The notes under the pieces are model-generated. The model was not told the origin of the DNA. It saw only the letters and a list, made by a program, of their open reading frames with translations, and did no database searches. A stretch of 64,000 nucleotides of DNA from Allolobophora icterica (lineage: Eukaryota; Annelida; Clitellata; Crassiclitellata; Lumbricidae). Below, piece by piece: positions 4,194 through 64,000 of this stretch (within the stretch, counting starts at the first letter, position 1; every line of letters begins with the position of its first letter). A program made the translations under genes and the position numbers. Where the stretch lies: positions 8,675,751 through 8,739,750 of the forward strand of contig OY744610.1 of the NCBI GenBank assembly GCA_963556255.1, in the 5' to 3' direction.

Positions 4194-4197
4194 TTAA

Positions 4198-4852: not shown

Positions 4853-4854
4853 CT

Positions 4855-5110
4855 CCATCCATCCATCCATCCATCCATCCATCCATCCATCCATCCATCC
4901 ATCCATCCATCCATCCATCCATCCATCCATCCATCCATCCATCCATCCATCCATCCATCCATCCATCCATCCATCCATCCATCCATCCATCCATCCATCC
5001 ATCCATCCATCCATCCATCCATCCATCCATCCATCCATCCATCCATCCATCCATCCATCCATCCATCCATCCACCCACCCACCCATTCATCCATCCATCT
5101 ATCCATCCAT
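4855..5110. repeat. (CCAT)n microsatellite
   Basis: About 255 bp of near-perfect CATC tetranucleotide, with a short run of CACC variants near 5071-5085. It creates long artefactual open frames on both strands that are not genes. Confidence 0.98.
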
Positions 5111-6075: not shown

Positions 6076-6083
6076 ATTAATAA

Positions 6084-7926: not shown

Positions 7927-8280
7927 TAATAATAAGTCGCTAGTCAAATCAACTTGGAGACAATGGATTGGTAATGACTAGAAGAAGTAGCTAAGTGATC
8001 TTAACTATAACATTTCGAGGCCGATGCTGCATGACGTGGTGCGGATGACCACATTGGCCCGTCTGGCATACGTAGCCACGGCATGGTGTGGGTTCGTGGG
8101 GACCAGGAGTGCAGTCAGGGGCGTCTACACCATAGAAACCTTGGAGCAAATGCTCCATCCACGAAATAGGGGTGGTGGTATCTGTCAATGTGCGTGCCAC
8201 CATTTTAGGGGGGAGGAAGGAGGAGGGCTGAAGAAGGGGAAGGGGAAGTTGCTCCAATGACTTAGGGGGGATAGACACTA
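7927..8280. other. Unassigned spacer with overlapping open frames
   Basis: Open frames of 78 codons (plus, 8024-8260) and 95 codons (minus, 7991-8278) overlap. The minus product is Cys/His/Pro rich but was not recognised. Not enough support for a gene. Confidence 0.35.
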
Positions 8281-14810: not shown

Positions 14811-14872
14811 AGCCTCATGAATTTACTGGTGCGTCGCAATAGAACAGAACTTGACGCCAACATAGATTATTA

Positions 14873-16719: not shown

Positions 16720-16789
16720 TTATTTATGTAAAGAACTTGAGTCAAACCACAAAAGCATGTACACAGCAGCACAAAAGCATGTACACAGC

Positions 16790-29685: not shown

Positions 29686-31476
29686 TCACATTACAACCGT
29701 TTTCAACATGTCATCAACTAAGTTGTCAGGTGGAGAAAATCGATGAGTAGAACAATGCTCTAGAAATTCCTCCTCTACTTCAAGCAAATCGTCACATATA
29801 CCACATCCAAAAGAGTTTGACAAAGACACTTTTGCATCCACTGAAAATGTTAGTTTGCTAATATACAGACATTCTCCATCCCTAATTTTCGGTAAAGGAC
29901 TTGCAATTCCATTAGAATCTGGATATATGTTCTTTGAGAAACGTTCATTTGGTTTATCAATAACAACTGTTATATGATCAGATAAGTTAGCAATTGCTTC
30001 GCTTCCCATTTCAGGATCCTGTGGCTGTGTTCCTGCACGGAGTTTAAACTGATTGGCTGAAGAACTGCTCTTTGTATAAGGTTTATTGTGCGTGTGTTGC
30101 TTCTCAGTTGCATGAGTTCTTCTGTGAATCTTTAGATTTCCCATTTGTGTGAATCCCTTATTGCAAACCTCACAGATGTATGGTTTTTCTCCTGTATGAG
30201 ATCTCATGTGCGCTTTCAGATGAGCACCTGCAGCAAATGTTTTCTGACATATCTGGCACATGTATGGTTTTTCTCTACTATGGGTTCTCATGTGCATCTT
30301 CTGTTGGCTACGATCAGAAAATAATTTCTTACACACATGACATTTGTATGGTTTCTCACCAGTATGGGTTCTCATGTGAGTTTTCAGATTACCACCTTGA
30401 GAAAATGTTTTATTACATATCCGGCACCTGTATGGTTTTTCACCAGTATGGGTTCTCATGTGCATTTTCAAAATACAATAATCAGTGAAAGATTTCTGAC
30501 ATAACGAACACATGTATGGTTTTTCGCCAGTATGGGTTCTTGCGTGGCTTCTAAGACAACTAGAGTCTGCAAATGATTTCTCGCATAGCTGGCACCTGTA
30601 TGGTTTTTCGCTAGTATGGGTTCTCATGTGCAGCTTCAGATAGCTACGAGCAGCAAATAATTTCACACACACGTGACATCTGTATGGTTTCTCACCAGTA
30701 TGAGTTCTCATGTGAGTTTTCAGATTACAACACTGAGAAAATGTTTTCTGACATATCTGGCACCAATATGGTTTTTCTCCAGTATGGGTTCTCATGTGTG
30801 ACGTCTGTTGGCTATGATTACCAAATAATTTCTTACACACTGGACATTTGTGTGGCTTCTCGCCAGTATGGGTTCTCATGTGCGTTTTCAGATGATCATG
30901 TTTAGCAAATGATTTATGACATAACTTGCATGCGTAGGGTTTTTCGCCAGTATGGGTTCTCATGTGCGTTATCAGGTTACCATCATTAGCAAATGTTTTC
31001 TGACATATCTGGCACCTGTATGGTTTTTCTCCAGTATGGGTTCTCGTGTGCGTTTTCAGATGATCGTGTTTAGCAAATGATTTCTGACATAACTTGCATC
31101 TGTATGGCTTTTCACCAGTATGGGTTGTCAAGTGCGTTTTCAGATTACCGCCTTGAGTAAATGTTTTCTGACATATCTGGCAACTGAATGGTTTTTCTCC
31201 AGTATGGGTTCTCATGTGCGTTTTCAGATCACAATTTCTAACAAATGATTTCTGACAAGACTGGCAACTGTATGGTTTTTCTCCTGTATGACGTCTGATG
31301 TGTTTTTTCAGATTACTACTCGAATCAAATGACTTCTGACATTTCTGGCACCTGTATTGTGTTTCTTCCATATGGGTTCCCGTATTCGCCATCCGGCTAT
31401 TTACCATTGAATCGATAATTTCACTGTTTCCTCCAGTATGGGTTCTTTGATTACCTCTCAGATGATTAACTTGCAC
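29686..31476 (-). CDS. C2H2 zinc-finger protein with 15 canonical fingers
   Basis: Probable nuclear DNA-binding protein. Reading N to C, 15 tandem fingers of the form C-x2-C-x12-H-x3-H are joined by HTGEKP-type linkers (first YRCQKCQKSF, last YICEVCNKGFTQMG). Two linkers deviate: HTSEKP after finger 9 and HSREKP after finger 13. Around residue 570 a lone divergent finger follows (CGICDD ... EHCSTH). No KRAB, BTB or SCAN domain is visible. The 5' end is uncertain: position 31476 is a GTG, the frame stays open to 31527 and is preceded there by TAG, which could be a splice acceptor (minus strand), with KKPHSCQLFQQ upstream. The first in-frame ATG gives a start inside MVNSRMANTG. It is the clearest intact host gene in the window. 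Targets cannot be inferred. Confidence 0.9.
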   Translation of the reverse strand: MQVNHLRGNQRTHTGGNSEIIDSMVNSRMANTGTHMEETQYRCQKCQKSFDSSSNLKKHIRRHTGEKPYSCQSCQKSFVRNCDLKTHMRTHTGEKPFSCQICQKTFTQGGNLKTHLTTHTGEKPYRCKLCQKSFAKHDHLKTHTRTHTGEKPYRCQICQKTFANDGNLITHMRTHTGEKPYACKLCHKSFAKHDHLKTHMRTHTGEKPHKCPVCKKLFGNHSQQTSHMRTHTGEKPYWCQICQKTFSQCCNLKTHMRTHTGEKPYRCHVCVKLFAARSYLKLHMRTHTSEKPYRCQLCEKSFADSSCLRSHARTHTGEKPYMCSLCQKSFTDYCILKMHMRTHTGEKPYRCRICNKTFSQGGNLKTHMRTHTGEKPYKCHVCKKLFSDRSQQKMHMRTHSREKPYMCQICQKTFAAGAHLKAHMRSHTGEKPYICEVCNKGFTQMGNLKIHRRTHATEKQHTHNKPYTKSSSSANQFKLRAGTQPQDPEMGSEAIANLSDHITVVIDKPNERFSKNIYPDSNGIASPLPKIRDGECLYISKLTFSVDAKVSLSNSFGCGICDDLLEVEEEFLEHCSTHRFSPPDNLVDDMLKTVVM

Positions 31477-31527
31477 ATAAGGTTGCTGAAATAATTGACA
31501 GCTGTGTGGCTTTTTAATGACGAGATT

Positions 31528-50582: not shown

Positions 50583-51298
50583 GTAATTAGGATAGACTCA
50601 AGTAGCTCGATCGGTAGATCATGGAGCTACAGGTTCAATGAAAAAGATAACACGTCTGCTCACACATTTCTTTACAACTCATCATAAACACAAATCAATT
50701 AAATCAATTAAAGATCTTTCAATCGAAATATGCAAAGAGGGGATTCTGTTGAATAGACACATATTAGAAGGTTAAGCTCAATAGAAACATGAGAACGAGT
50801 AGATGTACATTACGGGCTTTGGCGCAGCACCTCACTATTCTATCAAATTTGTCAGGGGATGGTCGCCACCCCCACAATTTTTTGTCCCCACCACTCCATT
50901 ATCTCACCGAATTAAGAGGATGCCGATCTATACCATCTAGGCTTCCAGGGGGTCCTGAAACCCACGGACAATTATAGCAGGCCGACTTCCAGGGCCTCCT
51001 GAGGGCCTACGAACGCTTTGTGTGACCATTTTCATAGTTGTGACCATAATATCTGTCACATCTGTCACGTTTAAGCTAGGAGCGTAATAACAGCTTTAAC
51101 TATTTAAATTAGGAATATACGCCAAGTTGAATATATAAAAACGGTGCGGCGCTCCTGAGTAGGTATCTTGAAGGGGCTATTTTAAATTCACAGAACGAAT
51201 GAATGAAAGAATGGAAATAGAGAGACTGAGAGAGAGGTAGAGAGATAGACAGAGACATTATTTTATCATAATCATAATTATACCATAATCATCATCAT
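50583..51298. other. Repeat-like non-coding stretch
   Basis: Ends with GGGGCTATTTTAAATTCACA and GAACGAATGAATGAAAG near 51170-51205, a SINE/LINE tail. No gene. Earlier exons of the minus-strand gene were looked for and not recognised. Confidence 0.4.
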
Positions 51299-51583
51299 AG
51301 GCGCCGACTTTTGGTTTTGTCTCTGGGTGCCAGTCAGGGGCGGATCCAGAAGGTTTATTTTTTAGTCATCCGTCATTTTCCATCGTCTGCACAAAAAATA
51401 AAAGGGGGCCATGTCTCCTAAAATTTGGCGACTTTTAGGAATTCATCCCCATAAAAATGTAACGACCTTTTTAGGAATACCCCAAAATTTAATTTAAGGT
51501 CCGAATTCCTCTGGGGCCAGGCCCCCACCGAACTTTTTCTCTGGGTGCATTGGCACCCAAGGCCCCCAAGAAGTCGGCGCCCA
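51299..51583. mobile_element. hAT-like MITE (GGCGCCGACTT ends), with nested hAT debris
   Basis: AGGCGCCGACTT at 51299 and AAGTCGGCGCC near 51573 are inverted. The flanks are ATCATCAT and ATGATCAT (6 of 8). Inside lies GTCAGGGGCGGATCCAGAAG, a typical other hAT terminus, and phrases such as CGACTTTTAGGAATTC shared with repeats near 5380 and 49800. Confidence 0.55.
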
Positions 51584-52152
51584 TGATCATCATTACACCA
51601 GTAATATATACTTTTTCGCTGAATACAGAAAAAAGTAGAATCACTACTCACCAGATGATTGGTTTTTTCCTTGGGCGGATTGCCGTTTCGTCTTGTACAG
51701 TAGTCATGTCCTGAAGACCAAGGCCAAGACCGTAGTCTCAAGGGCAACAAGACCCCCGCTTAGACTCGTCAGGACGTGTTTTACACGCCGACGGCCTCCT
51801 CCCAGCAAAACTGCTGGTCTTCCGCCCCCATGTGTGGAACACGATTGTTGGACGGCAAATACTATGTAATGATATTTCAGGGTCTACAGGGTCTACAGGG
51901 TCTATTGTGTTGCCTGTATTGGAGTCGTCTAAACTTTTAGTGAATATATAACCAATATAAATCTTTTAAATTTTCACAGAGCTACGCTATACCCGGCCTT
52001 ATACTGGCACGGCATCAGCTAAAAAATCCGTAATAGCCAGGCTCGAAGGAAATTTTTTTACCATGTTAGGGCATCCGTCCTTATAACAGCGCCGTATGAG
52101 CTCAAAATTCGTAATAGCCAGGCTGTAAGGAAGAATTAAAAATTTAGGGAAT
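51584..52152. other. No gene seen
   Basis: Contains a degenerate stretch related to the CCAAGA hAT family near 51715-51755 (GACCAAGGCCAAGACC, AACAAGAC) and two copies of TCGTAATAGCCAGGCT-like sequence near 52030 and 52108. Confidence 0.4.
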
Positions 52153-52506
52153 TTAACGACTATAAACTAAATTATAATTGACCTCCATATTCTCCACGAC
52201 AGGTTCACCCAAGCCTAGTAAAATGTCATCTTCTACCTGTTGAGGTGGTTGTAAATTCTCATATTCAGAATCTGAATCTTGGTTTAGGCCTATCTTTAAC
52301 CTGTTAACATTTTCACGCAATAACTTCCGTTCAATTGCGAGCTGCCTTAATTTTAACGCTGATTCATTCAGCTGTTGTTTCGTCTTTCTGTAATTTTGAT
52401 TTATTTTGTTAAGCTGCATTTCTACAGATTTAATTTTCTCTTTTTTACTAACCTCTTTAAATGGAATATCAGCTAAAGCTCGCAAAAATTTCTGTTCCTT
52501 GTCCAT
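52153..52506 (-). CDS. Small hypothetical coiled-coil protein
   Basis: The 117-codon frame starts MDKEQKFLRALADIPFKE and is rich in Lys, Gln and Leu with heptad-like spacing (KSVEMQLNKINQNYRKTKQQ, LKLRQLAIERKLLRENVNRL), then an acidic tail (DSDSEYENLQPPQQVEDDIL). It was not recognised. It lies 1.3 kb left of the Polinton-type genes, on the opposite strand, and could belong to that element or to the host; the position is the only argument. Confidence 0.45.
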   Translation of the reverse strand: MDKEQKFLRALADIPFKEVSKKEKIKSVEMQLNKINQNYRKTKQQLNESALKLRQLAIERKLLRENVNRLKIGLNQDSDSEYENLQPPQQVEDDILLGLGEPVVENMEVNYNLVYSR

Positions 52507-52826
52507 TTCCGAATGATTATAGCACGCTTACCGTTCAACAACCGTCTTCCGACACATGGGATGTCAATCCAGACTGAGCAGGTCCTATATATAAACACCC
52601 ACGTTGCTCTGCCTGCCTGCCCACTTCCATAGTAAGCATGCAGAGACTCTTACGCGCAGCCTGCCCAGCGACCAAATTTTGCGACGGCCCATATAAGTCG
52701 ATAGTTAAGACTCGCACAGAGACTGGCAGGCGCGCGGCTACCCCAGCCTGGCCCAGCCAGCAAAGTTTAGCACAGAGCCGCAAGGCTAGCCAGCAACGAC
52801 ACATGAGATTCATGACAATACAATGA

Positions 52827-52955
52827 ATACATATGCATGCATACATGCATACATACATACATACATGCATACATACATGCATACATACATACATACATAC
52901 ATGCATACATACATACATACATACATACATACATACATACATACATACATACATG
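52827..52955. repeat. (ATAC)n microsatellite with ATGC variants
   Basis: Tetranucleotide ACAT/GCAT tract of about 130 bp. It creates long artefactual Tyr-Met-Cys-Val frames on the minus strand. Confidence 0.95.
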
Positions 52956-53050
52956 CGGAGAACCGAAAAGGCAGACACAGGCCAACGCAGACGCAGACAG
53001 AGACACACACAGAGGCGCACACAGGCACACACACAGAGGAAGACATATGC

Positions 53051-53282
53051 CCGCATAGAGGCTTTAGGCTGCATCATTCGACGCTTGATATAAAACAGAC
53101 GCGTATTATTTTCCATCAGTGCAGCAGTCTCCGCCAACTGCCTAATTGTGATTTATTGCTTTGTACCCGCATAGAGGCTTTAGGCTATATCATTCAACGC
53201 TTGATATAAAACAGATGCGTATTATTTTCCATCAGTGCAGCGGTCCTTGACAACCGCCTAATTGTGATTTATTGCTTTGTAT
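53051..53282. repeat. Tandem duplication of a 116-bp unit
   Basis: Two copies, 53051-53166 and 53167-53282, share CCGCATAGAGGCTTTAGGCT, CTTGATATAAAACAGA and CCTAATTGTGATTTATTGCT with a few differences. They lie upstream of the Polinton-type genes and might be part of its terminal or promoter region; this is not proven. Confidence 0.85.
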
Positions 53283-53381
53283 TATATTCCATTAGTAAGC
53301 ATCCTGTTTCACGTGATGTGGCTTTTGTTTAGCACTGAGAAATCTCGGGGATATAGGCCTACATTACATTTACGTAAAGTT

Positions 53382-53474
53382 CATCCATCTATCTATCCAT
53401 CATTTTCCATCCATCCATCCATCCATCCATCCATCCATCCATCCATCCATCCATCCATCCATCCATCCATCCAC
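53382..53474. repeat. (CCAT)n microsatellite
   Basis: About 20 CATC units, the same tetranucleotide as at 4855-5110. Confidence 0.97.
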
Positions 53475-53514
53475 CGCGGTCTGGGTTTTACAACAAGCGA
53501 ACCATAAACACAGG

Positions 53515-53702
53515 CCAAAATAATAAGGACTTTGACCGATCATCGCCCATATCGACGCCGTGCACTTTCAGGCGATGACTGTAAGCCTTAAATCCAACAG
53601 CGGCCTATTTTTATGTACTGTGGCGCTTCATACGGCGAAGGAGTATAAATCGTGTTTAAAGGACTTGTATAATTAAAGACTTGGAAGTCCTTATTATTTT
53701 GG
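53515..53702. repeat. 18-bp inverted repeat and a duplicated 31-bp word
   Basis: CCAAAATAATAAGGACTT at 53515-53532 is exactly inverted at 53685-53702. In addition CGCTTCATACGGCGAAGGAG near 53623 recurs as CGCCTCATACGGTGAAGGAG near 53722, each followed by TATAAATC. The region is non-coding and lies just before the first Polinton-type gene. Confidence 0.8.
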
Positions 53703-53844
53703 TCATGGCATCTATGTACGTGGCGCCTCATACGGTGAAGGAGTATAAATCAATAACAATAATAATAATAATAATAATTAGCCTTGTTTTGAATATTTTT
53801 TCAATTTAAATAAAAGAATCTGTTGTGGTATCTATAAAAACATA

Positions 53845-54120
53845 ATGTTAGGACAAAACTTCTGCAAGTGGTTAGTTATAGGTAAAACAAATCTGTGCTG
53901 TCGCAGATGTATTGGGGAGCACTGTTTCAAGCATTTAGCACAGCTGCGAAATGGCTTTGAGACGAGACCGTGCGCTAAATGTGGTAGGGGCATCAAAAAC
54001 CACTTAGGTGAGTGCATGAAGTGTGGCTATTATGCTATACAATCAAGAATACGACGTGGTGGGTTAGTCCGTGAATTTAATAAGGAATGGAAGCGACTAT
54101 CAAATATATCTGTAGAATAA
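53845..54120 (+). CDS. Small Cys-rich (zinc-ribbon-like) protein of the Polinton-type element
   Basis: A 91-codon frame contains CCRRCIGEHCFKH near residue 18 and CAKCGRGIKN ... CMKCGYYA near residues 43-62, which suggests one or two zinc-binding knuckles, followed by a basic tail (RIRRGGLVREFNKEWKR). I did not recognise the family. It is the first plus-strand gene before the polymerase, so an early DNA- or RNA-binding role is possible but not shown. Start ATG at 53845 is the first in the frame after a TAA-rich stretch. Confidence 0.6.
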   Translation: MLGQNFCKWLVIGKTNLCCRRCIGEHCFKHLAQLRNGFETRPCAKCGRGIKNHLGECMKCGYYAIQSRIRRGGLVREFNKEWKRLSNISVE

Positions 54121-54130
54121 AAAAATTATC

Positions 54131-54245
54131 ATTTGAACAAACGACATAGTTATTGTATTGAGTTAATAGAGATGAGCAAGCGACAATCGAACACATAGTA
54201 AACAAAATTTCGTTTTAAACAAACGACATAATTATTGTATTAAGA
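54131..54245. promoter_or_regulatory. Direct repeat upstream of the polymerase gene
   Basis: AACAAACGACATAGTTATTG near 54137 recurs as AACAAACGACATAATTATTG near 54218, each followed by TATT(G/A)AG-like sequence. The second copy ends about 40 bp before the polymerase ATG. A promoter or other control role is inferred from position. Confidence 0.45.
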
Positions 54246-54282
54246 AAAAGTTTGCCATAGTAATATAAAATAATTTATAACT

Positions 54283-57200
54283 ATGGCATTGTCTGCGAAT
54301 GAAAAAATTGAACAATTGTTGGGCGAGTTTACTGGCCCCCCAGCTCTTCGAGCTGTTCTAAAAAATATCTTAGACGAACCTATCCCAGATGCAGTCAAAA
54401 GGCGCTTACTACAGCCACTACTTCCAAGGCCAATTCCTCCAGCGCGCAAGCATAGAGGGGCAAAACGTAAATCCCTTCTAGCACAATTCGACCCACTCCT
54501 AATTAAGAAGGATAGAGGTGGACCACCACCCTTTCTAGTACACAAAGAGCTCGCCAACCAGCTTCTGAGAGACTTCCGTGCAGAAGTACCTCTTAACCAC
54601 AGGCTGGAAAGAGATGCGTTGGCTTTCTTGAGTGCAATGGAGCACAACATTGAGGCGCAACTCAACGAAGAGCTGTTGAAACAAGACGGTCTGAAATACT
54701 CACAAGTGTTGACAGTTGAGTTGGAAAAGCTGGCTCCGACCGTTGACATGTTGTACGACGGAAACGCGACCCCGGGTACTATTACCAATACGGCCTACTT
54801 TCGAAGCAAAGCAGTGCCAATTACGAATGCGAGTAAAATCCAAGGGGCTGTTCGAAAGGCCAAGGCCGAAGTACTAAAACTCCTCGAGGAGTATACCAAT
54901 GAAGGGTCGGGGTGGAGAGTGAAGCGGGTCGTGGCGCTGGACCTCAGTTTTGCAAGATATAAGCCTTTCCGAGGTAGGAGCTACTTTCCCACACCAAAGT
55001 ATATACCCCCTCGTACGGTTATTAATGTAAAGAATAAAGATAACCGATGCTTCGAGTGGGCCATACTAAGCGCAATGTATCCAGTAGAAAAGGACCCTCA
55101 ACGCCCTACTAAGTATCGTACACACCTCCTCGAGCTAAACTTCGATGGTATAGAATTTCCAGTGAAGGTCACAGATATCGGTAAGTTCGAACGTCAGAAC
55201 CCTAATATAAGCGTCTCAGTCTTCGGGTGGGATAAAGCTTTGTATCCAATTTATGTCTCAAAGCAGACCAATAGAGACTATAATATCGATCTTCTACTGT
55301 TAGTCAGTGGCGAGAATTACCACTACGTCTGGATTAAAGACCTTGGCCGAATTCTTAATCAAAATAGCAAAGACAAAAACAAGAAACACCCATGTCGTCG
55401 CTGCCTACACATATTCTGTAGACAAGACTTACTGGATGCCCATATCAAAGATTGTCAGGGCATCAGTGAGAAGCCTCAGCGAATTGAGATGCCAAAAGAG
55501 GATGAAAATATCCTCAAATTCCAGAACCACCACAAACAGATACAAACCCCATATATCATATACGCAGACTTTGAGGCGTTGAACATACCAATCGAAGGTG
55601 CAGTCATGAACCCCAGCAAGAGCAACACCAGACAGATAGCTGAGCAGAAACCGTGTAGCTTCTGTTACATAGTGGTTCGATACGATGGCCGCACCAAGAA
55701 ACCAGTTTTATATCGTGGAGAGGACGCCGTGCAACAATTCCTACAACGAATACAAGGCGAGCTGGACTCTATCAGACAAAGGCTGGCCACCCCGGCTAAG
55801 ATGGTTATGTCAGCAGTTGATCGCCAATCATTCCGCGAAGCTATCGATTGTCACATCTGCGGAAATGCGCTCGAAGAGGATAGAGTTCGCGACCACTGTC
55901 ACATTACCGGTAAGTACCGAGGTGCCGCTCATAACGCCTGCAACCTCAAACTTCGAATATATCCCGATAAGTGTAAGGTACCGGTGGTCTTCCACAATCT
56001 GCGAGGTTACGACAGCCACCTCATAATGCAAGCGATCGGAGGCTGTGAGGCCGCACAGGATGAGGCAACTGAAATTAACTGTATTCCAAACAATATGGAG
56101 AAATACATGACATTTAACATTGGACAACTACAGTTCATCGATAGTCTCCAGTTTCTAAACAGCTCGTTAGATAAACTATCAGGAAATCTGTCGCTAGAGG
56201 ATCTCAAAGTCACAACGGCATATATAAAGGAAAATTTCGTTCGCAATGATAGGACAAAACTAGATCTGTTGAGACGAAAGGGCGTATATTGTTACGAATA
56301 CATCCATGATTACCACCGCTTCGAAGAAGACCGACTTCCACCCAAGGAAGCGTTCTACAGCAAGCTCACACGAGAGAGCATTTCTGACGAGGATTATCAA
56401 CACGCACAACGAGTGTGGGACGAGTTTGACTGTAAAACTCTGGGCGACTATCACGACTTGTATCTCCGTACGGATGTACTTCTACTAGCCGATGTCTTCG
56501 AAACCTTCAGATCCACATCGATGAAGCACTACAGTCTGGATCCAGCAAATTACTTCAGCCTGCCAGGAATGGCCTGGGACGCATTGTTGAAAAAGACGAA
56601 GATCGAGCTCGAACTTTTAACCGATATAGATATGCATTTGTTCGTAGAGAAAGGTCTCCGAGGTGGAATCTCGATGGTATCTAAGCGCTTCGCAAAAGCC
56701 AACAACCCGCAATGCCCCGACTACGATACCACGAAGCCAGACAACTGGATCATGTACCTCGACGCGAATAATCTTTACGGCTGGGCGATGCAACAGCCAC
56801 TACCAGTTGGAGGATTTAGCTGGGAAAGTCCTACTCTCGACGAAGTGTTGGAAACTCCAGATGACGCGCCTGAAGGCTTCCTACTTGAAGTCGATCTCGG
56901 GTACCCGGAGCACCTCCACGAATCACATAGCGACTATCCCTTAGCACCGGAGACCCTGACAGTCCAAGAGGAGTGGTTGAGTGACTATCAGAATGTGCTT
57001 ATGAACGAGTTGGGAGGCAAGTTCACAAAGCATGTGAAGTTAGTACCAAGCCTACGACCTAAGGAGCGGTATGTGGTCCATTATAGAAATCTCAAACTCT
57101 ACCACTCGTTAGGGCTACGAGTTTCTAAAATTCATCGTGTCATTAAGTTTAGACAGGAGGCATGGATGGCTCCATACATCGAGATGAATACGAAATTGAG

Positions 57201-58023
57201 AGCGAAGGCAACGTCGGAATTTGAGAAGGATTTCTTCAAGCTGGCTAATAATGCGGTCTTTGGAAAGACCATGGAAAATCTTAGAAAAAGAATCAGGGTC
57301 AACCTGGTCCCGACCTCAAAAGTTGACAAACTTCGTAAACTAATTGCGGACCCGGCCTACATATCACACAAAATCTTCAACGACCAACTCGCCGCGATTC
57401 ACAGTTTGAAGAGCAAGCTCAAGTTAAACAGACCTGTATATGTCGGCCAGGCTGTCCTCGACCTCAGCAAGCATCTGATGTACGACTTCTGGTACAACGA
57501 TGTGAAAAACGAGTACGGAGAAAAAGCCCAGTTGCTATATACAGACACTGACAGCCTGTTATTTCAGGTGGAAACTCCGAACGCCTATGCCGATATGTGG
57601 AATAAAAAACACCTATACGACCTCTCAGAGTTTCCAAGAGACAGCCCCTATTACGACGTCGAGAACAAGAAAGTCGTGGGAAAGTTCAAAGATGAATGTA
57701 ACGGAGTTGCCATAGCCCAATTCGTGGGACTGCGTCCGAAGATGTACTCGATCTTAAAATCGGGTGGTTCAGAAATCAGGAAAGCAAAAGGCGTTCAGAG
57801 AGCAGTTGTGAAGAAGGATCTGCACCACGAGCTATACAAGGAGTGCCTGTTCGAACGAGAAGAGATGCGGCACACACAAGTCGTGATTAGAAGCCACGAC
57901 CACCAGATCGGAGTGTACGAGCAGAATAAGATCAGCCTCTCTCCATTAGACACAAAAAAGTGGATATCTCCGGACGGGATAACAACGCTGGCATATGGGC
58001 ACTACAAAATCAACGACGGTTGA
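54283..58023 (+). CDS. polB: Protein-primed family B DNA polymerase (Polinton type)
   Basis: Replicates the element's DNA. At 1246 residues it has the usual Polinton size. Visible parts: an N-terminal region of unknown fold; a C2H2-like finger around residue 370 (CRRCLHIFCRQ ... DAHIKDC); exonuclease motif I around 426 (YADFEALN), motif II near 570 (FHNLRGYDSHL) and motif III near 727 (YLRTDVLLLAD); polymerase motif A near 825 (YLDANNLYGW), motif B near 986 (KLANNAVFGKT), motif C near 1086 (LYTDTDSLLF) and a K-x-Y box near 1150 (RPKMYS). Between exonuclease motifs I and II sits CHICGNALEEDRVRDHCHIT with CNLKLR, an endonuclease VII/HNH-like zinc module. All catalytic carboxylates are present. 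It is convergent with the integrase gene, overlapping by 14 bp at the stops. Confidence 0.96.
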   Translation: MALSANEKIEQLLGEFTGPPALRAVLKNILDEPIPDAVKRRLLQPLLPRPIPPARKHRGAKRKSLLAQFDPLLIKKDRGGPPPFLVHKELANQLLRDFRAEVPLNHRLERDALAFLSAMEHNIEAQLNEELLKQDGLKYSQVLTVELEKLAPTVDMLYDGNATPGTITNTAYFRSKAVPITNASKIQGAVRKAKAEVLKLLEEYTNEGSGWRVKRVVALDLSFARYKPFRGRSYFPTPKYIPPRTVINVKNKDNRCFEWAILSAMYPVEKDPQRPTKYRTHLLELNFDGIEFPVKVTDIGKFERQNPNISVSVFGWDKALYPIYVSKQTNRDYNIDLLLLVSGENYHYVWIKDLGRILNQNSKDKNKKHPCRRCLHIFCRQDLLDAHIKDCQGISEKPQRIEMPKEDENILKFQNHHKQIQTPYIIYADFEALNIPIEGAVMNPSKSNTRQIAEQKPCSFCYIVVRYDGRTKKPVLYRGEDAVQQFLQRIQGELDSIRQRLATPAKMVMSAVDRQSFREAIDCHICGNALEEDRVRDHCHITGKYRGAAHNACNLKLRIYPDKCKVPVVFHNLRGYDSHLIMQAIGGCEAAQDEATEINCIPNNMEKYMTFNIGQLQFIDSLQFLNSSLDKLSGNLSLEDLKVTTAYIKENFVRNDRTKLDLLRRKGVYCYEYIHDYHRFEEDRLPPKEAFYSKLTRESISDEDYQHAQRVWDEFDCKTLGDYHDLYLRTDVLLLADVFETFRSTSMKHYSLDPANYFSLPGMAWDALLKKTKIELELLTDIDMHLFVEKGLRGGISMVSKRFAKANNPQCPDYDTTKPDNWIMYLDANNLYGWAMQQPLPVGGFSWESPTLDEVLETPDDAPEGFLLEVDLGYPEHLHESHSDYPLAPETLTVQEEWLSDYQNVLMNELGGKFTKHVKLVPSLRPKERYVVHYRNLKLYHSLGLRVSKIHRVIKFRQEAWMAPYIEMNTKLRAKATSEFEKDFFKLANNAVFGKTMENLRKRIRVNLVPTSKVDKLRKLIADPAYISHKIFNDQLAAIHSLKSKLKLNRPVYVGQAVLDLSKHLMYDFWYNDVKNEYGEKAQLLYTDTDSLLFQVETPNAYADMWNKKHLYDLSEFPRDSPYYDVENKKVVGKFKDECNGVAIAQFVGLRPKMYSILKSGGSEIRKAKGVQRAVVKKDLHHELYKECLFEREEMRHTQVVIRSHDHQIGVYEQNKISLSPLDTKKWISPDGITTLAYGHYKINDG

Positions 58024-59023
58024 GTATTCTATCGGGGGGTAGCTCAGTGCCCATAGGCACCAGAAGCAGCTCCTCACGGACAAAACCGCGGCCAGGCCCA
58101 TCAACTAGATGGTATAAAGCCGGTTGCTCAGCCTGCCGAACAACATCCAAAATAGCGTGGATGGTGAGCGACCAGTTAGGGTCGGTGGCTCGTTTGCTAC
58201 CACCCTCGAGCTCGCCGGGAGCGTACAAATATCGGACGAGAACGTCGTGTCCGAGAATAGGCTCATCCATTCCCCACAAACGAGTTTTCATTTGTGAATG
58301 AGAGGGCTTCTGTGTCACTTTAGCAGCTTTCATCGCTTCAACCGGCTTCATGTCGAGCAAGCGCGTCGGCTCATCGTTTAGTGCAGCTACAACTTCGGGC
58401 AATCGTCGAACCCATTCCACTGACCGTTCGGATGACCCCCTTGCATCCAGGAGCAATTCCTGAGCGTATTGAGCACCGAAGAGTCGCTCAGCTAGAGTAC
58501 GGTTAAAGCGTTCAACGATGCCCTGTTGGCGATGATTTCCGGCCTGTCCGCGTCTTACAAGAACGTCGTGCTTCGTCAGCAACGGTGTAAAATCACCCAT
58601 AAATTCGCGTCCAGGATCGACCTGAAAGAGTCGAGGCCAAGTTAATGGGCCCCTCTTATAGATCCGGCTTAAAGCGGCGGCGACTTCGGTCGCACTTTTG
58701 TTGATCAACGGTTCAGCTTCTTTGTATCGTGAGGCAACATCAACAACTGTGAGAGCGTATTTATAAGTCTTTCGACCTACTTTATCGTGAGGTAAAAACA
58801 AGAGATCGGCTTGGTGTACCGCGTTTGGTCGATTTTCATCGAACTTTGGACGCGGTATGCGGCGTGGAACGGGAAGATAAATCTGCCACACAGCTTGTTT
58901 CTTCAACCAATCACGAGCCTCCGCCTCGGAAACTTTGGCGGCTGAGGCTAGTTTCTTCACCGCGGCCTTACCTCGCCAGTAACCTCTAGGGCTGTAATAG
59001 ACGGCTGAAAGGTGCTTAGACAT
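58010..59023 (-). CDS. int: Retroviral-type DDE integrase (Polinton integrase)
   Basis: Joins the element's ends to host DNA. The start at 59023 (MSKHLSAVYYSPRGYWRG) is preferred to an upstream ATG at 59089 that adds a hydrophobic stretch. An N-terminal segment with KKLASAAKVSEAEARDWLKK is like the helical region before the core. The catalytic triad is visible: Asp near residue 72 (HQADLLFLP), Asp near 136 (FQVDPGREF) and Glu near 171 (IVERFNRTLAERL), a D,D-35-E spacing. A basic, chromo-like/SH3-like C-terminus follows (DPNWSLTIHAILDVVRQAEQ). It is downstream of the phospholipase gene on the same strand, with a 75-bp gap, and overlaps the polymerase stop. Confidence 0.93.
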   Translation of the reverse strand: MSKHLSAVYYSPRGYWRGKAAVKKLASAAKVSEAEARDWLKKQAVWQIYLPVPRRIPRPKFDENRPNAVHQADLLFLPHDKVGRKTYKYALTVVDVASRYKEAEPLINKSATEVAAALSRIYKRGPLTWPRLFQVDPGREFMGDFTPLLTKHDVLVRRGQAGNHRQQGIVERFNRTLAERLFGAQYAQELLLDARGSSERSVEWVRRLPEVVAALNDEPTRLLDMKPVEAMKAAKVTQKPSHSQMKTRLWGMDEPILGHDVLVRYLYAPGELEGGSKRATDPNWSLTIHAILDVVRQAEQPALYHLVDGPGRGFVREELLLVPMGTELPPDRILNRR

Positions 59024-59098
59024 TTCAGTAATACTATATATTACAAACAGGTAAACACATACACAAATGAATTTCATTTGCGTTTTCATAAATGAAAC

Positions 59099-59689
59099 TC
59101 ATTTATGGCCCTTTGTTCTGACACCCATCCCCAGCCTCGACTTCGCTGACATAATGGCCGATACCAGCCGCGCATCCTTCTTCTCATAATCCGGAGTTTC
59201 ATCGGTGAGTGCGATCTTCGACGCGGCTGCAGCGAGGATGTCATCTGCGTGGTTACGCCCCGGAGTATCTTTATGAACTGCGTAAGCCACATCATGGTGG
59301 AGGCACGCACGGTCGAGCTGATTAACACCGTGATAGCGCTGTGACAGCCGTTTATCGAGTTTTGTGAATGGTCCACAGTAAGAGTACTTTCCTGTATTCT
59401 GAAAAGAACCTCCAGGATTATCTTCCGAAGACATACCGGATGGAAGGCTCATATGCATCTCAGGCAGAGGCAGAATATTAAGAGCACTATTCAGTAGCGA
59501 GCCTCCGCTAGACTCATGAGTCTTGCGCTTCCGCACTTTAGAAGGCAAAATTTGGCTCTTCTTTGCACCGCAGACGGCACAGGTTCCCTTCTTGGCTGGC
59601 CGACCGTTTCGTAACTCGACGATTGTTTCATTTGAAGTCTCAGTATGTTTCTTACATCGTAGGCAATACATTGTGTTCGTTGAATACAA
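59099..59689 (-). CDS. DUF5679 zinc ribbon fused to a phospholipase A2-like domain
   Basis: N-terminal residues 7-45 read MYCLRCKKHTETSNE and KKGTCAVCGAKKSQ, the four-Cys DUF5679 ribbon common in large DNA viruses and Polinton-type elements. After a Ser/Pro-rich linker comes a phospholipase A2-like core: a calcium-loop-like YCGPFTKL near 104 and the catalytic DRACLHHDVAY near 126-136, where His and Asp are the expected active pair. The same type of lipase domain occurs in parvovirus capsid proteins, where it helps breach endosomal membranes; a similar entry role is inference. Start could be Met1 (59689) or Met7 (59671). It is divergent from the ATPase, 20 bp away, so the two share a promoter region. 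Confidence 0.88.
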   Translation of the reverse strand: MYSTNTMYCLRCKKHTETSNETIVELRNGRPAKKGTCAVCGAKKSQILPSKVRKRKTHESSGGSLLNSALNILPLPEMHMSLPSGMSSEDNPGGSFQNTGKYSYCGPFTKLDKRLSQRYHGVNQLDRACLHHDVAYAVHKDTPGRNHADDILAAAASKIALTDETPDYEKKDARLVSAIMSAKSRLGMGVRTKGHK

Positions 59690-59709
59690 TCATAACTCGT
59701 TGTCTCTAT
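59690..59709. promoter_or_regulatory. Very short divergent intergenic region
   Basis: Only about 20 bp separate the phospholipase start (minus) and the ATPase start at 59710 (plus). Transcription of at least one gene must therefore begin inside the other's coding region. Confidence 0.5.
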
Positions 59710-60396
59710 ATGGAAATAACAAATTTCGATCTCGAAGCCGACGATGGGAAAAAACACCACCATTGGTTGTTGCCATCAAGCATACGATGCATAATCTGTG
59801 GGCCTAGCGGATGTGGAAAAACAAACCTACTGCTCAACCTCCTTCTGAAAAAGGGGTACCTACGTTTTGACCGGCTCTATCTATACTCAAAGTCTCTGGG
59901 ACAGGAAAAATATCAGTTCCTCCGGGACTGGGTTACAGAGTTGGAAAAAGTTGCCGGGAAGGAAGTGGCTTCCTTTCACTCTTGCTCAGATGAAATAGTT
60001 CCAGTTGAATCATTAAATAAGAATGCCAGAAGCCTTCTAGTGTTCGATGACGTCATGCTTGAAAAACAGTCGCCCATCGAAAGGTATTTCACTATGGGTC
60101 GACACGGTGGCGCGGACTGCTTCTACTTAACTCAAAATTACTTCCGCATTCCCAAGCAAGCGATCCGTGACAATGCTAATCTTATCGTCCTCTTCAACCA
60201 AGACAGCAAAAATTTGCGAGCCATTCACGATACGTTCGTGGGCGGCGACATGTCTTTCGATGAATTCCGTACGTTCTTCAGCGAGTGCGCTGCCCAACCA
60301 TATGGATTCGCAGTCATAGATTTGACGTCCAAAGTGTACGATGGAAAATATCGTTGCGGGTTCGATCGCTTCTATAAGCCCAAGGCAAGTATTTAA
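59710..60396 (+). CDS. A32-like (FtsK/HerA-type) DNA-packaging ATPase
   Basis: Pumps DNA into the capsid in related viruses. The frame is open from 59563, but MEITNFDLEADDG at 59710 is the best start because it just clears the divergent gene and puts Walker A at residues 31-38 (GPSGCGKT), as in family members of this size (about 228 aa). Walker B is near 110 (SLLVFDDVM). Next come the RHGGADCFYLTQNYF and IRDNANLIVLFNQD blocks typical of A32-like packaging ATPases. It ends with YKPKASI. Confidence 0.93.
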   Translation: MEITNFDLEADDGKKHHHWLLPSSIRCIICGPSGCGKTNLLLNLLLKKGYLRFDRLYLYSKSLGQEKYQFLRDWVTELEKVAGKEVASFHSCSDEIVPVESLNKNARSLLVFDDVMLEKQSPIERYFTMGRHGGADCFYLTQNYFRIPKQAIRDNANLIVLFNQDSKNLRAIHDTFVGGDMSFDEFRTFFSECAAQPYGFAVIDLTSKVYDGKYRCGFDRFYKPKASI

Positions 60397-60567
60397 AGAC
60401 ATGATATAGGCAACATATAGTCGACATATGGACAAAAGTTATCGTTACTGATTGATTGAATGTGTATAAAAAATACCTTAGCGTGACAGTTGTGACGATA
60501 TTATCAGTCACATTGTAAAACTTGTCACACTTAAGAACTTACAAGATATAGTCGACATACAACCACG
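60397..60567. promoter_or_regulatory. Intergenic region with a partial copy of the next gene's start
   Basis: TATAGTCGACATATGGACAA at 60417 is echoed by TATAGTCGACATAC at 60547 followed by ATGTGGACAAAAGTTTCG, which is the start of the 366-aa gene. The upstream copy would encode only MDKSYRY. This looks like a small duplication of the promoter and start region. AACTTGTCACACTTAAG and GTGACAGTTGTGACG are other repeated words. Confidence 0.6.
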
Positions 60568-61668
60568 ATGTGGACAAAAGTTTCGTCTAAACAGGAGCGA
60601 GACGCCTTGACTCAGGATTATTTAGCTCGCAGAAATCGATTGAGACAGCGTTTCGTGGATGAGAAGCTCGGTGAAGCCAACCTTCAGTACGATGCGGCAA
60701 AGCTTTTTAAACCAATAGCCACAGCCACGGCTGAATCCCAGGTGGCTACGTCTAAGGAGCTGCAGAAAGTTACCAGCGCTTTACAGGATTTGCCGGCGCA
60801 GATTTCAGAGTCTGCTAATTTTAACCCGATAGCAGCTTTGTTCGGTGAAACCGCAGGAACAGCAGCTCCTGCGCTTCCAGCGCTTCCAGCATCCCGAATC
60901 CCCCCCGCACTGTTAGTTGATCCAAACAAATATCTCAACGTCGAGGCAATCATAAGGCACGGTTTCAGACCTCCGAGCGAGCTCGATTTAGCCGACAAGG
61001 CAGGTGCTGAAAAGATAATCGGTGAGGTCAATCACTATAATCGCCACACCCTGGGCAAAGAGAAAAAGCTGGCTAAAAAGCAAAAAGACGAAGAAAAGGT
61101 AGATGCGGTGACTGCAGATATCGAAGCCCTAAGGGAATATAAAAAGCGAATCGATACACTGATAGAGGGCCACACCCTCATCAAAAAGGGAAAGGGTTTC
61201 AGTGTTCCAACCGTTCCTCTGAAATTACAAGGTAACGCCTTGGGTGAGCTCTCCGTTGACCCCGTCGCCCTGTCTGCTGGTAGACTGAGAGTGTTTAAAG
61301 GTGGCAACCTCGTTCTCGAATCTCCGGCCGATGAGTCGTTGTTCAACCTACTAACAAAACGCTTCGTTAAGACTAAGCAATACTCGCCTCAGGCAATTGA
61401 AACTTTCAAAAAGCTCGTACAGATGTCTGGTCTGCCTATTCATGGCCGGAAAAGTAAAAAGTTCCAGCTGATTCGAGGCGGCGCGGTGCAATTTTACAAC
61501 GATCCAAACGCCCTGGTAGAGAGGTTGCAGCTTTTGGTGGCCTCTAGGGCCGCGGGAAACACTGGTCTCGGCAACGAAATCTCCGCCATTCTCGACGAGT
61601 TACTGCGTTCCGGTGCGATCTCCAAAGAGCTGGCACTCGAATTGAATAGAAACATGCTCATAAAATAG
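60568..61668 (+). CDS. Unknown 366-aa Polinton-type protein with coiled-coil and basic regions
   Basis: The family looks familiar from Polinton-type elements of invertebrates (from memory), but no function is known to me. Visible: an N-terminal Arg/Lys/Glu-rich helix (KQERDALTQDYLARRNRLRQ), an Ala/Pro-rich hinge near residue 95-115 (TAAPALPALPASRIPPA), a strongly charged coiled-coil segment near 155-200 (KEKKLAKKQKDEEKVDA), a middle domain and a C-terminal block (ASRAAGNTGLGNEISAILDE). The position between ATPase and capsid genes suggests a virion or scaffold role. Start ATG at 60568; 18 bp before the next gene. Confidence 0.8.
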   Translation: MWTKVSSKQERDALTQDYLARRNRLRQRFVDEKLGEANLQYDAAKLFKPIATATAESQVATSKELQKVTSALQDLPAQISESANFNPIAALFGETAGTAAPALPALPASRIPPALLVDPNKYLNVEAIIRHGFRPPSELDLADKAGAEKIIGEVNHYNRHTLGKEKKLAKKQKDEEKVDAVTADIEALREYKKRIDTLIEGHTLIKKGKGFSVPTVPLKLQGNALGELSVDPVALSAGRLRVFKGGNLVLESPADESLFNLLTKRFVKTKQYSPQAIETFKKLVQMSGLPIHGRKSKKFQLIRGGAVQFYNDPNALVERLQLLVASRAAGNTGLGNEISAILDELLRSGAISKELALELNRNMLIK

Positions 61669-61686
61669 AAATAGAAAACAAAATTC

Positions 61687-62487
61687 ATGGCTCAGATGGA
61701 ACGCTCGGAGAAACTGCTCGAAGAAATTAGAGAACTTTTACAGCCTAAGGAAAATTTTAGTATAGTTGTTTCCTCAGATACTACAGGGTGGACCACGGCT
61801 TTCTCACCGCCGCTGTACCTGGATCCAAAAAGACGCTATGAGCTTGCTTTGGTCAATCTTGAAACTTATAATTCTATTCCGAACATTGACAGCTCAAATA
61901 ACAAGTTCGTCTACAGCACCGACAATGGTGTGACGTGGAAGACGATCATTTTGCCCGACGGAAGCTACGAGATCGCACAGATTAATGATGAAATCGGTAG
62001 GCAGTTAGAAAAGCAAAATTCTCCGACGGGTGTGGCACCACTCGGCTTTAATTCTCCTATTACCATAGGAGCTAACGCATCTACCCTACGCGCCTTCATA
62101 AAAATTACGAATGCCCTATATAAGGTAAATATGGCTCAATCTACCATCAGGCAAATGCTCGGTTTTAACCCTCAGAGGCTTGGTAGTGGTTATAAAGAGG
62201 GAGAAAATCCAGTCGATATTCTCCGCGTGAACACAATCCTGGTAAATTGTGACATTATCTCTGGATCGTATCGAAATGGTAGCCAGCTGCCAGTAATCTA
62301 TAGTTTTTTCCCGGATGTGTCGCCCGGCTACAAGGTAATCGAGTCTCCGAAAAATCTGGTGTACCTACCAGTTGCACCGGCTGGTAACGTACAGGGCATT
62401 CGTGTGTGGCTGACCGACCAGAATGGTGAACAATTAAACCTCCGCGGTGAGACAGTAACTATAAGGTTTCACATCCGCAGTGCGTAA
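61687..62487 (+). CDS. Minor capsid (penton-like) protein of the Polinton-type element
   Basis: A 266-residue protein that is strand-rich after a short N-terminal helix (MERSEKLLEEIRELL). It contains blocks that I recognise from minor capsid/penton proteins of Polinton-like elements: GWTTAFSPPLYLDPKRRYEL, ALVNLETYNSIPN, TIRQMLGF, IISGSYRNGSQLPVIYSFFP, and a C-terminal RVWLTDQNGEQLNLRGETVT. It lies next to the capsid genes. A single jelly-roll fold is inferred from family membership, not shown. Its start is 18 bp after the previous stop. Confidence 0.82.
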   Translation: MAQMERSEKLLEEIRELLQPKENFSIVVSSDTTGWTTAFSPPLYLDPKRRYELALVNLETYNSIPNIDSSNNKFVYSTDNGVTWKTIILPDGSYEIAQINDEIGRQLEKQNSPTGVAPLGFNSPITIGANASTLRAFIKITNALYKVNMAQSTIRQMLGFNPQRLGSGYKEGENPVDILRVNTILVNCDIISGSYRNGSQLPVIYSFFPDVSPGYKVIESPKNLVYLPVAPAGNVQGIRVWLTDQNGEQLNLRGETVTIRFHIRSA

Positions 62488-62509
62488 ATGTTCACACTTA
62501 AATATTCTC

Positions 62510-62968
62510 ATGTTTGTTCTTGGAATTAAAAAGCGGCGTCGTGTCGTGGGTGGTGGACTTTTCGACTGGATACCCAAAATCGCGGGTTTCCTTGGCCGTG
62601 CAGGCTCCTTCATTTCGGCGAATAGAGGCACAATCACAAACGTTGCCAAGGCGGTTGGTAATGTCGCGAAAGCCGGCGCCACAACAGCATCTGCCGTCAG
62701 GCAAATTGTTGATGCCGTGAAAGCGAGACGCGCTGCGGCCGTAAATGAAGCTCATTTACGAAATGAAAATTCATCTGCCGCGCCCGCTGTCCCCGCACCT
62801 TTGGAGAAGGCGCTCAGCGAAAAGAGCATCGAATACTTGAAACAACTGGCTGTGAGTCCGCCACCCGTTGTTCCGACAATGGCTGACATAAACAGCCGCA
62901 TTGCTGGATCCGGTTTCAAGACTATAAAGCCGAGTCGTTGTGGTAGGGGTCTGTTTCTTGCAAAATGA
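62510..62968 (+). CDS. Short basic, glycine-rich protein, possibly a membrane-active core protein
   Basis: The frame is open from 62480, but the ATG at 62510 (MFVLGIKKRRRVVGGGLF) is a better start, avoiding overlap with the upstream gene. About 152 residues: a basic start (KKRRR), then a Gly-rich amphipathic helix candidate (GGGLFDWIPKIAGFLGRAGS), an Ala-rich region, and a C-terminal GSGFKTIKPSRCGRGLFLAK. The layout resembles small adenovirus and Polinton virion core or lytic-type proteins (protein VI/X-like). This is inference from composition and place. Confidence 0.7.
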   Translation: MFVLGIKKRRRVVGGGLFDWIPKIAGFLGRAGSFISANRGTITNVAKAVGNVAKAGATTASAVRQIVDAVKARRAAAVNEAHLRNENSSAAPAVPAPLEKALSEKSIEYLKQLAVSPPPVVPTMADINSRIAGSGFKTIKPSRCGRGLFLAK

Positions 62969-63079
62969 AAAAAATTTCCGACTAATTCACAAAACGGAAA
63001 AAAATGTTTAACCCACCACATATGAAATTAATTTGCAACATGATTAATAATTGAAGCTTGAACTTTTTTAACTATAATA

Positions 63080-64000
63080 ATGGCGGCATTTGACGTGCCG
63101 AGTGAAATGTTGGACATCGCTTCGGCGGTACCCGATGACAATAGCATAGAATCGTTTGAATACCGTGAGTATGAATCACAAAACCCTGCGGCTATTAACA
63201 ACGGCCAGGCCATACAGATAGACATCCAGAATCAAGACATTTTCACGCAACCTTCCAAGAGTTACCTTCTTGTGGAGGGCAGGATTACATCAACTGGCGC
63301 GGGTTACAACGCAGACTCGTTGGTGTCATTCATCAACAATGCTATCCCGTACATGTTTTCTCAAATTCGATACCTGGCTAACAATACCGAGATAGAGAAT
63401 GTCATGTCACCTGGGCAAGCCACGACGATGAAAGGCATGCTGGTATACGGCGATGATTTTTCCAAAGGCGAAGGTTTAAACATGTGTTGGCAGAAGGACA
63501 CGACCGCGGCGGCGGCGGCTGCGAATATCGGCTTCGAGGCCCGTCGACTGATGATCATTGGAAAACCCGTCCCTATTGGAACGTTTTCATTCATCGTTCC
63601 CTTAAGACATCTATTCGGTTTTTGCGATGATTATCACAAGGTCGTATACGGGATCAAACACTCCTTACTGCTGAGCCGGCAGGGGGATGCAGACGCGATC
63701 TTCAAGGAAGCCGCAGCGGCCAATGGCCAGATCGCGCTGACTAAACTCTCCTGGTTCATGCCGCATATAATACCCGCTCTGGAGTATAAAAGCATGCTTA
63801 TGAAGCAGATTGAAGCCAAGGTTAAGGTACCTGTAGCATTCCGCGCCATGCAATGCGACAACATTGCGGTGCCACGAGCGACGACTTTTTCCTGGCGTTT
63901 GAGCGTTAAGTCGGGCACGGAAAAGCCACGCTGGATTCTTGTTGCTTTTCAGACTGGAAAGAATGCACATCAAGGCCAGAATCCGGCACTGTTTGACCAT
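63080..64000 (+). CDS. Major capsid (hexon-like) protein, N-terminal 307 residues, cut by the window edge
   Basis: The ATG at 63080 (MAAFDVPSEMLDIASAVPDD) starts a frame that stays open to the window end. The sequence contains SFEYREYESQNPAAINNGQA, DIFTQPSKSYLLVEGRI, SFINNAIPYMFSQIRYLANN and GKPVPIGTFSFIVPLRHLFG, blocks typical of the double jelly-roll major capsid proteins of Polinton/adintovirus-type elements. It forms the trimeric hexon-like capsomer in such viruses. The remaining half or more lies outside the window. 111 bp separate it from the previous gene. Confidence 0.88.
   Translation, partial: MAAFDVPSEMLDIASAVPDDNSIESFEYREYESQNPAAINNGQAIQIDIQNQDIFTQPSKSYLLVEGRITSTGAGYNADSLVSFINNAIPYMFSQIRYLANNTEIENVMSPGQATTMKGMLVYGDDFSKGEGLNMCWQKDTTAAAAAANIGFEARRLMIIGKPVPIGTFSFIVPLRHLFGFCDDYHKVVYGIKHSLLLSRQGDADAIFKEAAAANGQIALTKLSWFMPHIIPALEYKSMLMKQIEAKVKVPVAFRAMQCDNIAVPRATTFSWRLSVKSGTEKPRWILVAFQTGKNAHQGQNPALFDH

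What the first reader, a model, noticed from the sequence alone, without database searches (positions are those of the whole stretch)
53800..64000. Apparently intact Polinton-type endogenous virus with replication, integration, packaging and capsid genes
Seen: nine compact open frames with conserved catalytic motifs (polymerase, integrase, Walker ATPase), against a background of decayed transposons. Known: this gene set defines animal Polintons/adintoviruses. Inferred: a recent insertion or a still active element that could make virions.
Basis: partly seen in the sequence, partly recalled or inferred. Interest (0 to 1): 0.9.

Follow-up and report, generated by a model that had tools for sequence, protein, structure and literature searches.

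The report
Recently inserted, recombining earthworm Polinton virus
An 18.6-kb virus-like element with replication, integration and capsid genes sits between its own terminal repeats in what appears to be an earthworm chromosome; it belongs to a large, recently spreading family whose members have traded gene blocks and carry different versions of a fibre protein that may bind host cells.

Summary
The nine frames are real. The element begins at window 50798 and ends 5.4 kb beyond the window (window-equivalent 69405): 18,608 bp, 5'-AGTAGATG ends, inverted repeats with 3 mismatches in the first 222 bp, and a 5-bp target duplication GAACG. Beyond the window lie the rest of the capsid gene, a core-like protein, a protease frame, a 721-aa fibre with partial phage-tail-fibre similarity and two small genes. 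The host is probably an earthworm (cytochrome b 92% to Eisenia nordenskioldi). The family is large: 62 full-length fibre genes among 62 scored candidates (of 1777), 50 without a stop. A sister copy elsewhere, with its own duplication, differs at 3/5163 and 1/1524 sites. Capsid and polymerase palm are equally constrained (dN/dS 0.076, 0.070), yet their distances are uncorrelated (r = -0.04), and the window copy is a patchwork. Fibre and p181 come in at least two classes. It is a known kind, a Polinton; what looks new is the extent of exchange between copies, the fibre classes and a terminal segment that changes ends. Virions are inferred, not shown.

The parts
50793..50797 (.). left copy of the 5-bp target-site duplication, GAACG (the right copy lies beyond the window at L009:5606-5610, window-equivalent 69406-69410)
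50798..51068 (+). left terminal inverted repeat; first 222 bp with 3 mismatches to the right end (right repeat beyond the window, L009:5316-5605, window-equivalent 69116-69405)
51110..53795 (.). variable terminal segment with microsatellites and a 124-aa frame at 52156-52527 (-); at the left here, at the right and inverted in six copies of the burst group
53845..54120 (+). 91-aa cysteine-rich frame, function unknown
54283..58023 (+). [quoted passage not shown]
58010..59089 (-). retrovirus-type integrase, 359 aa
59099..59689 (-). DUF5679 plus phospholipase A2-like protein, 196 aa (first ATG at 59671)
59563..60396 (+). packaging ATPase (Pox_A32 type); first ATG at 59710 gives 228 aa
60568..61668 (+). 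366-aa protein of unknown function with 41 homologues
61687..62487 (+). 266-aa protein, candidate penton (weak)
62480..62968 (+). 162-aa protein, function unknown
63080..64000 (+). double-jelly-roll major capsid protein; the gene continues beyond the window to L009:575 (window-equivalent 64375). Further genes beyond the window, in L009 coordinates (add 63800 for window-equivalents): 190-aa core-like protein 633-1205, protease frame 1172-1576 (first ATG 1271), fibre 1605-3770, p181 3777-4322, p201 4330-4935

Best explanation
This is a complete, recently inserted Polinton (Maverick) endogenous virus, one of a large family in the genome of what is probably an earthworm. Likely cycle: the protein-primed polymerase copies the linear genome from its terminal repeats; the integrase inserts it with a 5-bp duplication; capsid, ATPase, protease and fibre make a virion that carries the genome to new cells, including the germ line. 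Copies have diverged under purifying selection on replication and capsid genes alike, and have exchanged blocks of about 1 kb so often that polymerase and capsid histories are unlinked. The fibre C-terminus and p181 occur as alternative cassettes on a shared backbone. Shown: gene set, repeats, duplications, recency, selection, mosaic structure, fibre classes. Inferred: virion formation, reinfection, receptor binding by the fibre, and exchange during co-replication rather than by gene conversion between integrated copies.
For: Gene set. Terminal repeats with a 5-bp duplication: both ends found in 7 of 11 copies examined, duplication perfect in 6 and 4 of 5 bases in the seventh, and perfect in the sister copy. 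Recency: sister copy 3/5163 and 1/1524 differences with its own duplication ACTTT, its 2686-bp variable segment reported 100% identical; eight burst copies with 0-3 of 1524 polymerase differences, and 0/921 capsid differences in the 6 whose capsid piece was recovered. Selection: dN/dS 0.070 (polymerase palm) and 0.076 (capsid), 55 pairs of 11 copies each; 0.094-0.165 over longer polymerase stretches, 21 pairs of 7 copies; protease 0.119, 45 pairs. Recombination: polymerase and capsid dS r = -0.036, 2517 of 5000 permutations at least as high; r2 falls from 0.229 to 0.089 within 1.5 kb, 0 of 1000 permutations as steep; the window capsid part is identical to the burst copies (0/921) while the polymerase differs at 106-107 of 1524 sites, and the patchwork is seen along the element. 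Fibre classes.
Against: No virion, transcript or population data. Copies come from the top of score-ranked lists (91 of 1541 and 62 of 1777 candidates scored), which favours intact ones. The protease frame has no ATG before its conserved N-terminus, and its database hits are weak. The penton is unproven. Some copies are broken: longest polymerase stretch 623 aa in L006, one TAG in 12 of 62 fibres, a stop in 1 of 10 capsid pieces and in 1 of 9 protease pieces, a split fibre frame in L050. Gene conversion between integrated copies could also make mosaics.
Confidence: 0.85

Rival explanations
1. A self-synthesising transposon: the elements multiply only inside the genome by polymerase and integrase, and the capsid genes no longer make particles.
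For: Multiplication within one genome is plain: eight near-identical copies and a near-identical sister pair. No particle has been seen.
Against: Capsid and protease genes are about as constrained as the polymerase (0.076 and 0.119 against 0.070); 50 of 62 listed fibre genes have no stop, though that list is biased to intact copies.
Confidence: 0.2
2. The mosaics arise by gene conversion between integrated copies in the host chromosomes, not by recombination between co-replicating virus genomes.
For: Many similar copies share one nucleus; conversion tracts of about 1 kb would look like the blocks.
Against: Exchange is so complete that polymerase and capsid distances are unrelated while frames stay constrained; the two ends of one element share a base change that distinguishes it from its sister, which points to copying during replication. 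None of this excludes conversion.
Confidence: 0.35
3. An old, decaying endogenous virus that only looks intact by chance.
For: LINE remnants surround it; some other copies are broken.
Against: Sister copy with 3/5163 differences, perfect target duplication, and a low chance of open frames under neutral change (for the capsid part at 3% change the chance is 35%, so there it is weak).
Confidence: 0.03

Closest known systems
Polintons/Mavericks of vertebrates (PMC8097293; abstract and passages seen)
   Same: Polymerase, integrase, ATPase and capsid genes, terminal repeats, constrained genes; that paper reports 134 intact elements in 17 species, 12.7-24.6 kb, at most 38 intact copies in one genome.
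   Different: 5-bp instead of the 6-bp duplication given there; probable earthworm host; 49 of the 52 listed polymerase places have open frames of at least 1,000 aa (at least two of the 52 belong to a second family; full intactness of these copies was not tested); exchange of blocks and fibre classes.
Adintoviruses (original paper not held; definition from passages of the preprint PMC11071296)
   Same: PolB, rve integrase, hexon-type capsid; the preprint also reports mixed pairings of deep polymerase and hexon clades, so module exchange as such is known.
   Different: No chromodomain hit on the integrase; OTU domain and reciprocal hexon match not tested; here exchange is seen among close relatives in one genome.
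Polinton-like viruses of cryptophytes (PMC12220804; passages seen)
   Same: Bacteriophage-like fibre proteins with repeated modules, and expansions within host genomes.
   Different: Protist hosts, and other fibre domains.
Bacteriophage tail fibres
   Same: 48 shaft residues match a Caudoviricetes tail fibre at 56% (the only one of 50,697 phage records at E 1e-5); the C-terminus matches phrog_17517 'tail protein' (2.1e-6) and phrog_16348 (4.8e-8).
   Different: Similarity covers parts of one protein only; no Pfam family reaches its cut-off, and the short-class fibre of L054 has no Pfam match at 0.1.

Membership tests
[quoted passage not shown]
   PF03175 1.6e-21, 1246-aa frame. Protein priming itself was not tested.
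Polinton/Maverick | retrovirus-type integrase | tested here: met
   rve 4.5e-10
Polinton/Maverick | packaging ATPase | tested here: met
   Pox_A32 3.9e-8
Polinton/Maverick | adenain/Ulp1-type cysteine protease | tested here: inconclusive
   Weak PDB hits to adenoviral and ASFV proteases (0.0098-0.022), followed by unrelated hits from 0.12; no Pfam match for the part from the ATG; catalytic residues seen by eye, motif recalled.
Polinton/Maverick | double-jelly-roll major capsid protein | tested here: met
   PF21738 7.6e-30 for the window part and 5.5e-32 for the downstream part
Polinton/Maverick | penton (minor capsid) protein | tested here: inconclusive
   DUF5901 4.4e-4, below its cut-off; model pLDDT 34.7; only two sialidase hits at 0.14-0.15 in PDB
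Polinton/Maverick | terminal inverted repeats beginning 5'-AG | tested here: met
   AGTAGATG at both ends
Polinton/Maverick | short target-site duplication (6 bp in vertebrate elements) | tested here: met
   5 bp, not 6: perfect in 6 of 7 copies with both ends and in the sister copy
Adintovirus | integrase with C-terminal chromodomain | tested here: inconclusive
   A Pfam scan up to E 1 lists only rve and rve_3
Adintovirus | OTU-like domain at the N-terminus of PolB | not tested
   No model of the polymerase was made
Adintovirus | hexon reciprocally recognisable by BLASTP | not tested
   Reference hexons were not compared

The most novel reading that the evidence does not exclude
An animal germ line holds a freely recombining population of functional Polinton viruses: replication, capsid and fibre modules re-assort almost independently, alternative receptor-binding cassettes are kept on one backbone, and terminal segments move from one end of the genome to the other. 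It would be the Polinton counterpart of a sexually recombining virus species, still spreading.
Probability: 0.4. Interest if true: 0.8.

Novelty: new member of a known kind. Interest (0 to 1): 0.6.

Why it matters
Whether animal Polintons make infectious particles is open. A host with dozens of recent, largely open-framed copies, similar constraint on capsid and polymerase, and differing fibre genes makes that testable: presence or absence between individuals, transcripts and particles can be sought directly. Block exchange at this rate also means that a tree of one gene need not describe an element's history.

Tried and rejected
Left boundary near 53.8 kb: no matching inverted repeat there; the left repeat was found by comparing the right end with the whole window. 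The 2.7-kb left segment as a host insertion: rejected, since it recurs in other copies, at the right end in six burst copies. The 366-aa protein: no match at E 0.001 in BFVD or PDB structures. The penton as a single-sequence model: useless. Relatives in IMG/VR by polymerase and capsid: none confirmed. Rfam and tRNA scans of the window: nothing. Age from repeat divergence alone: given up, because in a mosaic the ends may have different parents, and ends change together. Total copy number by a capsid DNA search and an empty-site search did not complete. Left out of counts: L050 and L055 for the fibre (frame split; piece partial), L059 for p181 (partial), L050 and L059 for p201; L050 and L059 were put in the short class by sight. 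L059 is a divergent member: the lowest within-class fibre identity is 0.655, about as low as between classes, so there may be a third type. Missing: capsid pieces L065, L067 (the palindrome) and L077. In one search the L055 protease piece gave no match.
Full report
What is there. The nine frames of the finding are real. Pfam names the polymerase, integrase, ATPase, phospholipase/DUF5679 protein and capsid clearly; the 91-, 366-, 266- and 162-aa proteins have no match above a curated cut-off. By eye, catalytic motifs of polymerase, integrase and ATPase look intact (motifs recalled, no call).

Borders. The window lies at G000:C9:8675751-8739750 in a 1.118-Gb assembly of 328 contigs. I fetched 9 kb across the right edge. 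Comparing the right end with the whole window put the left inverted repeat at 50798, 3 kb left of the finding. The alignment gives 5'-AGTAGATG termini, 3 mismatches in the first 222 bp (my count on the printed alignment; 262 identities, 8 mismatches and 20 gap positions over its whole length), and GAACG on both sides. The element is C9:8726548-8745155, 18,608 bp.

Genes beyond the window. The capsid frame ends at L009:575 (PF21738 again, 5.5e-32). Then come a 190-aa protein (Adeno_PX 0.018, below cut-off), a protease frame with weak hits to adenoviral and ASFV proteases (0.0098-0.022), a 721-aa fibre, and 181- and 201-aa proteins. The fibre's C-terminus hits phrog_16348 (4.8e-8) and phrog_17517 'tail protein' (2.1e-6); 48 shaft residues hit one phage tail fibre, and 34 residues a PDB tail fibre at 0.022. 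The conserved N-terminus of the protease lies before its first ATG; how it starts is unknown.

Host. Contig C328 carries a cytochrome b that is 92% identical to Eisenia nordenskioldi; the named hits among the 120 listed are clitellate worms, mostly earthworms (their taxonomy is recalled). Its neighbours look like cox3, nad6 and atp6 (by eye), an annelid order (recalled). That C328 is the host's own mitochondrion is assumed.

Relatives. The 366-aa protein has 41 homologues, best 67%. The polymerase has 7,899 hits among 7,987 scored candidates; the best are unnamed (70%), and the first named is a land snail, Bradybaena similaris (68% over 69% of the query), followed by Elysia crispata. No relative was confirmed in IMG/VR.

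The family. A PolB2 search lists 52 places (91 of 1541 candidates scored), none with a stop inside the match, 49 with open frames of at least 1,000 aa. Of the eight given as loci, six are 90-95% identical in DNA to the window polymerase and two belong to a second family at 41% amino-acid identity. A fibre search lists 62 (the window copy included), each full length, 50 without a stop and 12 with one TAG (62 of 1777 candidates scored). The lists are lower bounds and biased to intact copies. Of ten more copies whose ends were fetched, six showed both terminal repeats; with the window copy, 6 of 7 have perfect 5-bp duplications and the seventh 4 of 5 bases (one, L012/L013, read by eye). Four of the ten showed no pair in the 3-kb pieces.

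Recency. The C5 copy carries the 2686-bp variable segment at reported 100% identity, differs at 1 of 1524 polymerase sites and 3 of 5163 sites around the fibre, and has other flanks and the duplication ACTTT: a separate insertion, not a segmental duplication. Eight copies on C1 (two), C5 (two, one palindrome), C9, C14, C15 and C19 differ by 0-3 of 1524 sites; the six whose capsid piece was recovered are identical over 921 bases to each other and to the window copy.

Selection. Mean dN/dS is 0.070 for the polymerase palm and 0.076 for the capsid part (55 pairs of 11 copies each; of the ten other copies none has a polymerase stop and 9 of 10 no capsid stop). Over longer polymerase stretches it is 0.094-0.165 (21 pairs of 7 copies). 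Protease 0.119 (45 pairs; 1 of 9 pieces with a stop), p162 0.083 (6 pairs only), p190 0.206 (45 pairs); p201 about 0.11, p181 0.22, fibre 0.40 within and 0.33 between classes. In simulated neutral change the palm stays open in 1.2% of trials at 7% and in none at 14%; the capsid part in 35%, 10% and 1.4% at 3%, 7% and 14%. The polymerase copies were picked by score; the capsid pieces only by their position beside them.

Recombination. Across 11 copies polymerase and capsid dS are uncorrelated (r = -0.036; 2517 of 5000 permutations at least as high). Within the palm, linkage falls with distance (r2 0.229 under 25 bp, 0.089 beyond 400 bp; 0 of 1000 permutations; four gametes in 8669 of 18721 site pairs; 19 copies, 194 sites). 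Against burst pieces the window copy is a patchwork: 4-26% different per 250 bases in the compared parts of the polymerase, about 1% in much of the integrase, 0/1201 at 62800-64000, 50 and 65 differences (gaps counted) per 250 in p190, 0/1000 at L009:1250-2249, then strongly different in the fibre C-terminus. Other copies show the same pattern near the fibre.

Fibre classes. Long (about 720 aa) and short (about 600 aa) fibres share the first 240 residues (76-96% per 60 aa) and then differ (3-70%). Between-class dS is 0.68 for the fibre and 0.61 for p181, against 0.19 and 0.14 within; p201 next door shows little class effect (0.195 against 0.169) (misaligned repeats may inflate the fibre values). 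Within-class fibre identity falls as low as 0.655, so a third type is possible. Fibre class does not predict polymerase or capsid distance (2710 and 2750 of 5000 permutations). Two copies with near-identical capsids (dS 0.015) carry different fibre classes.

Ends. The segment 51110-53795 is at the left in the window copy, but at the right and inverted in six burst copies at 89-90% identity (positions relative). Both repeats of the sister carry the same base change relative to both repeats of the window copy. This suggests that ends are copied onto each other or exchanged during replication (inference).

Literature. Listings only: Polinton and Maverick with mollusc (15 papers), gastropod (2) and annelid (4); Polinton with tail fiber (13) and earthworm (2); with recombination terms (9; 9); with phospholipase A2 (4); with fiber protein, receptor binding and invertebrate (0); adintovirus (29). 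Passages were seen of PMC8097293, PMC11071296, PMC11071308 and PMC12220804. The earthworm mention in PMC11071296 concerns an RNA virus. I recognised no report of this family or of such exchange between close copies, but the original adintovirus paper and the nematode Polinton paper are not held, supplements were not searched, and priority cannot be claimed.

Verdict. A known kind of element in an unusually informative state: complete, recent, numerous, constrained and recombining.

Noticed in passing
L064-L067 (C5:5768004-5781003): Two identical polymerase copies (0/1524) face each other, with a perfect 2140-bp inverted repeat between them centred near C5:5774503: a fold-back palindrome of part of an element, or an assembly artefact.
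   Followed up: partly
L002, L005: A second Polinton family lives in the same genome; its polymerase is 41% identical in amino acids to that of the window copy.
   Followed up: partly
12 fibre copies on C2, C3, C5, C6, C8, C9, C11 and C14: Twelve of 62 listed fibre genes carry exactly one TAG while otherwise full length; perhaps one inherited stop in an amplified lineage. Positions were not compared.
   Followed up: no
window 6076-7933 and 14866-16727: Large inverted repeat, 99% in its pieces, about 7 kb between the arms, of reverse-transcriptase-like sequence.
   Followed up: no
window 29689-31527 (-): A 613-aa open stretch of many C2H2-type zinc fingers (by eye) with an 84-bp period.
   Followed up: no
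window 12156, 14197, 34554, 39929: A 33-bp CAAGAC-type minisatellite recurs at four places on both strands.
   Followed up: no
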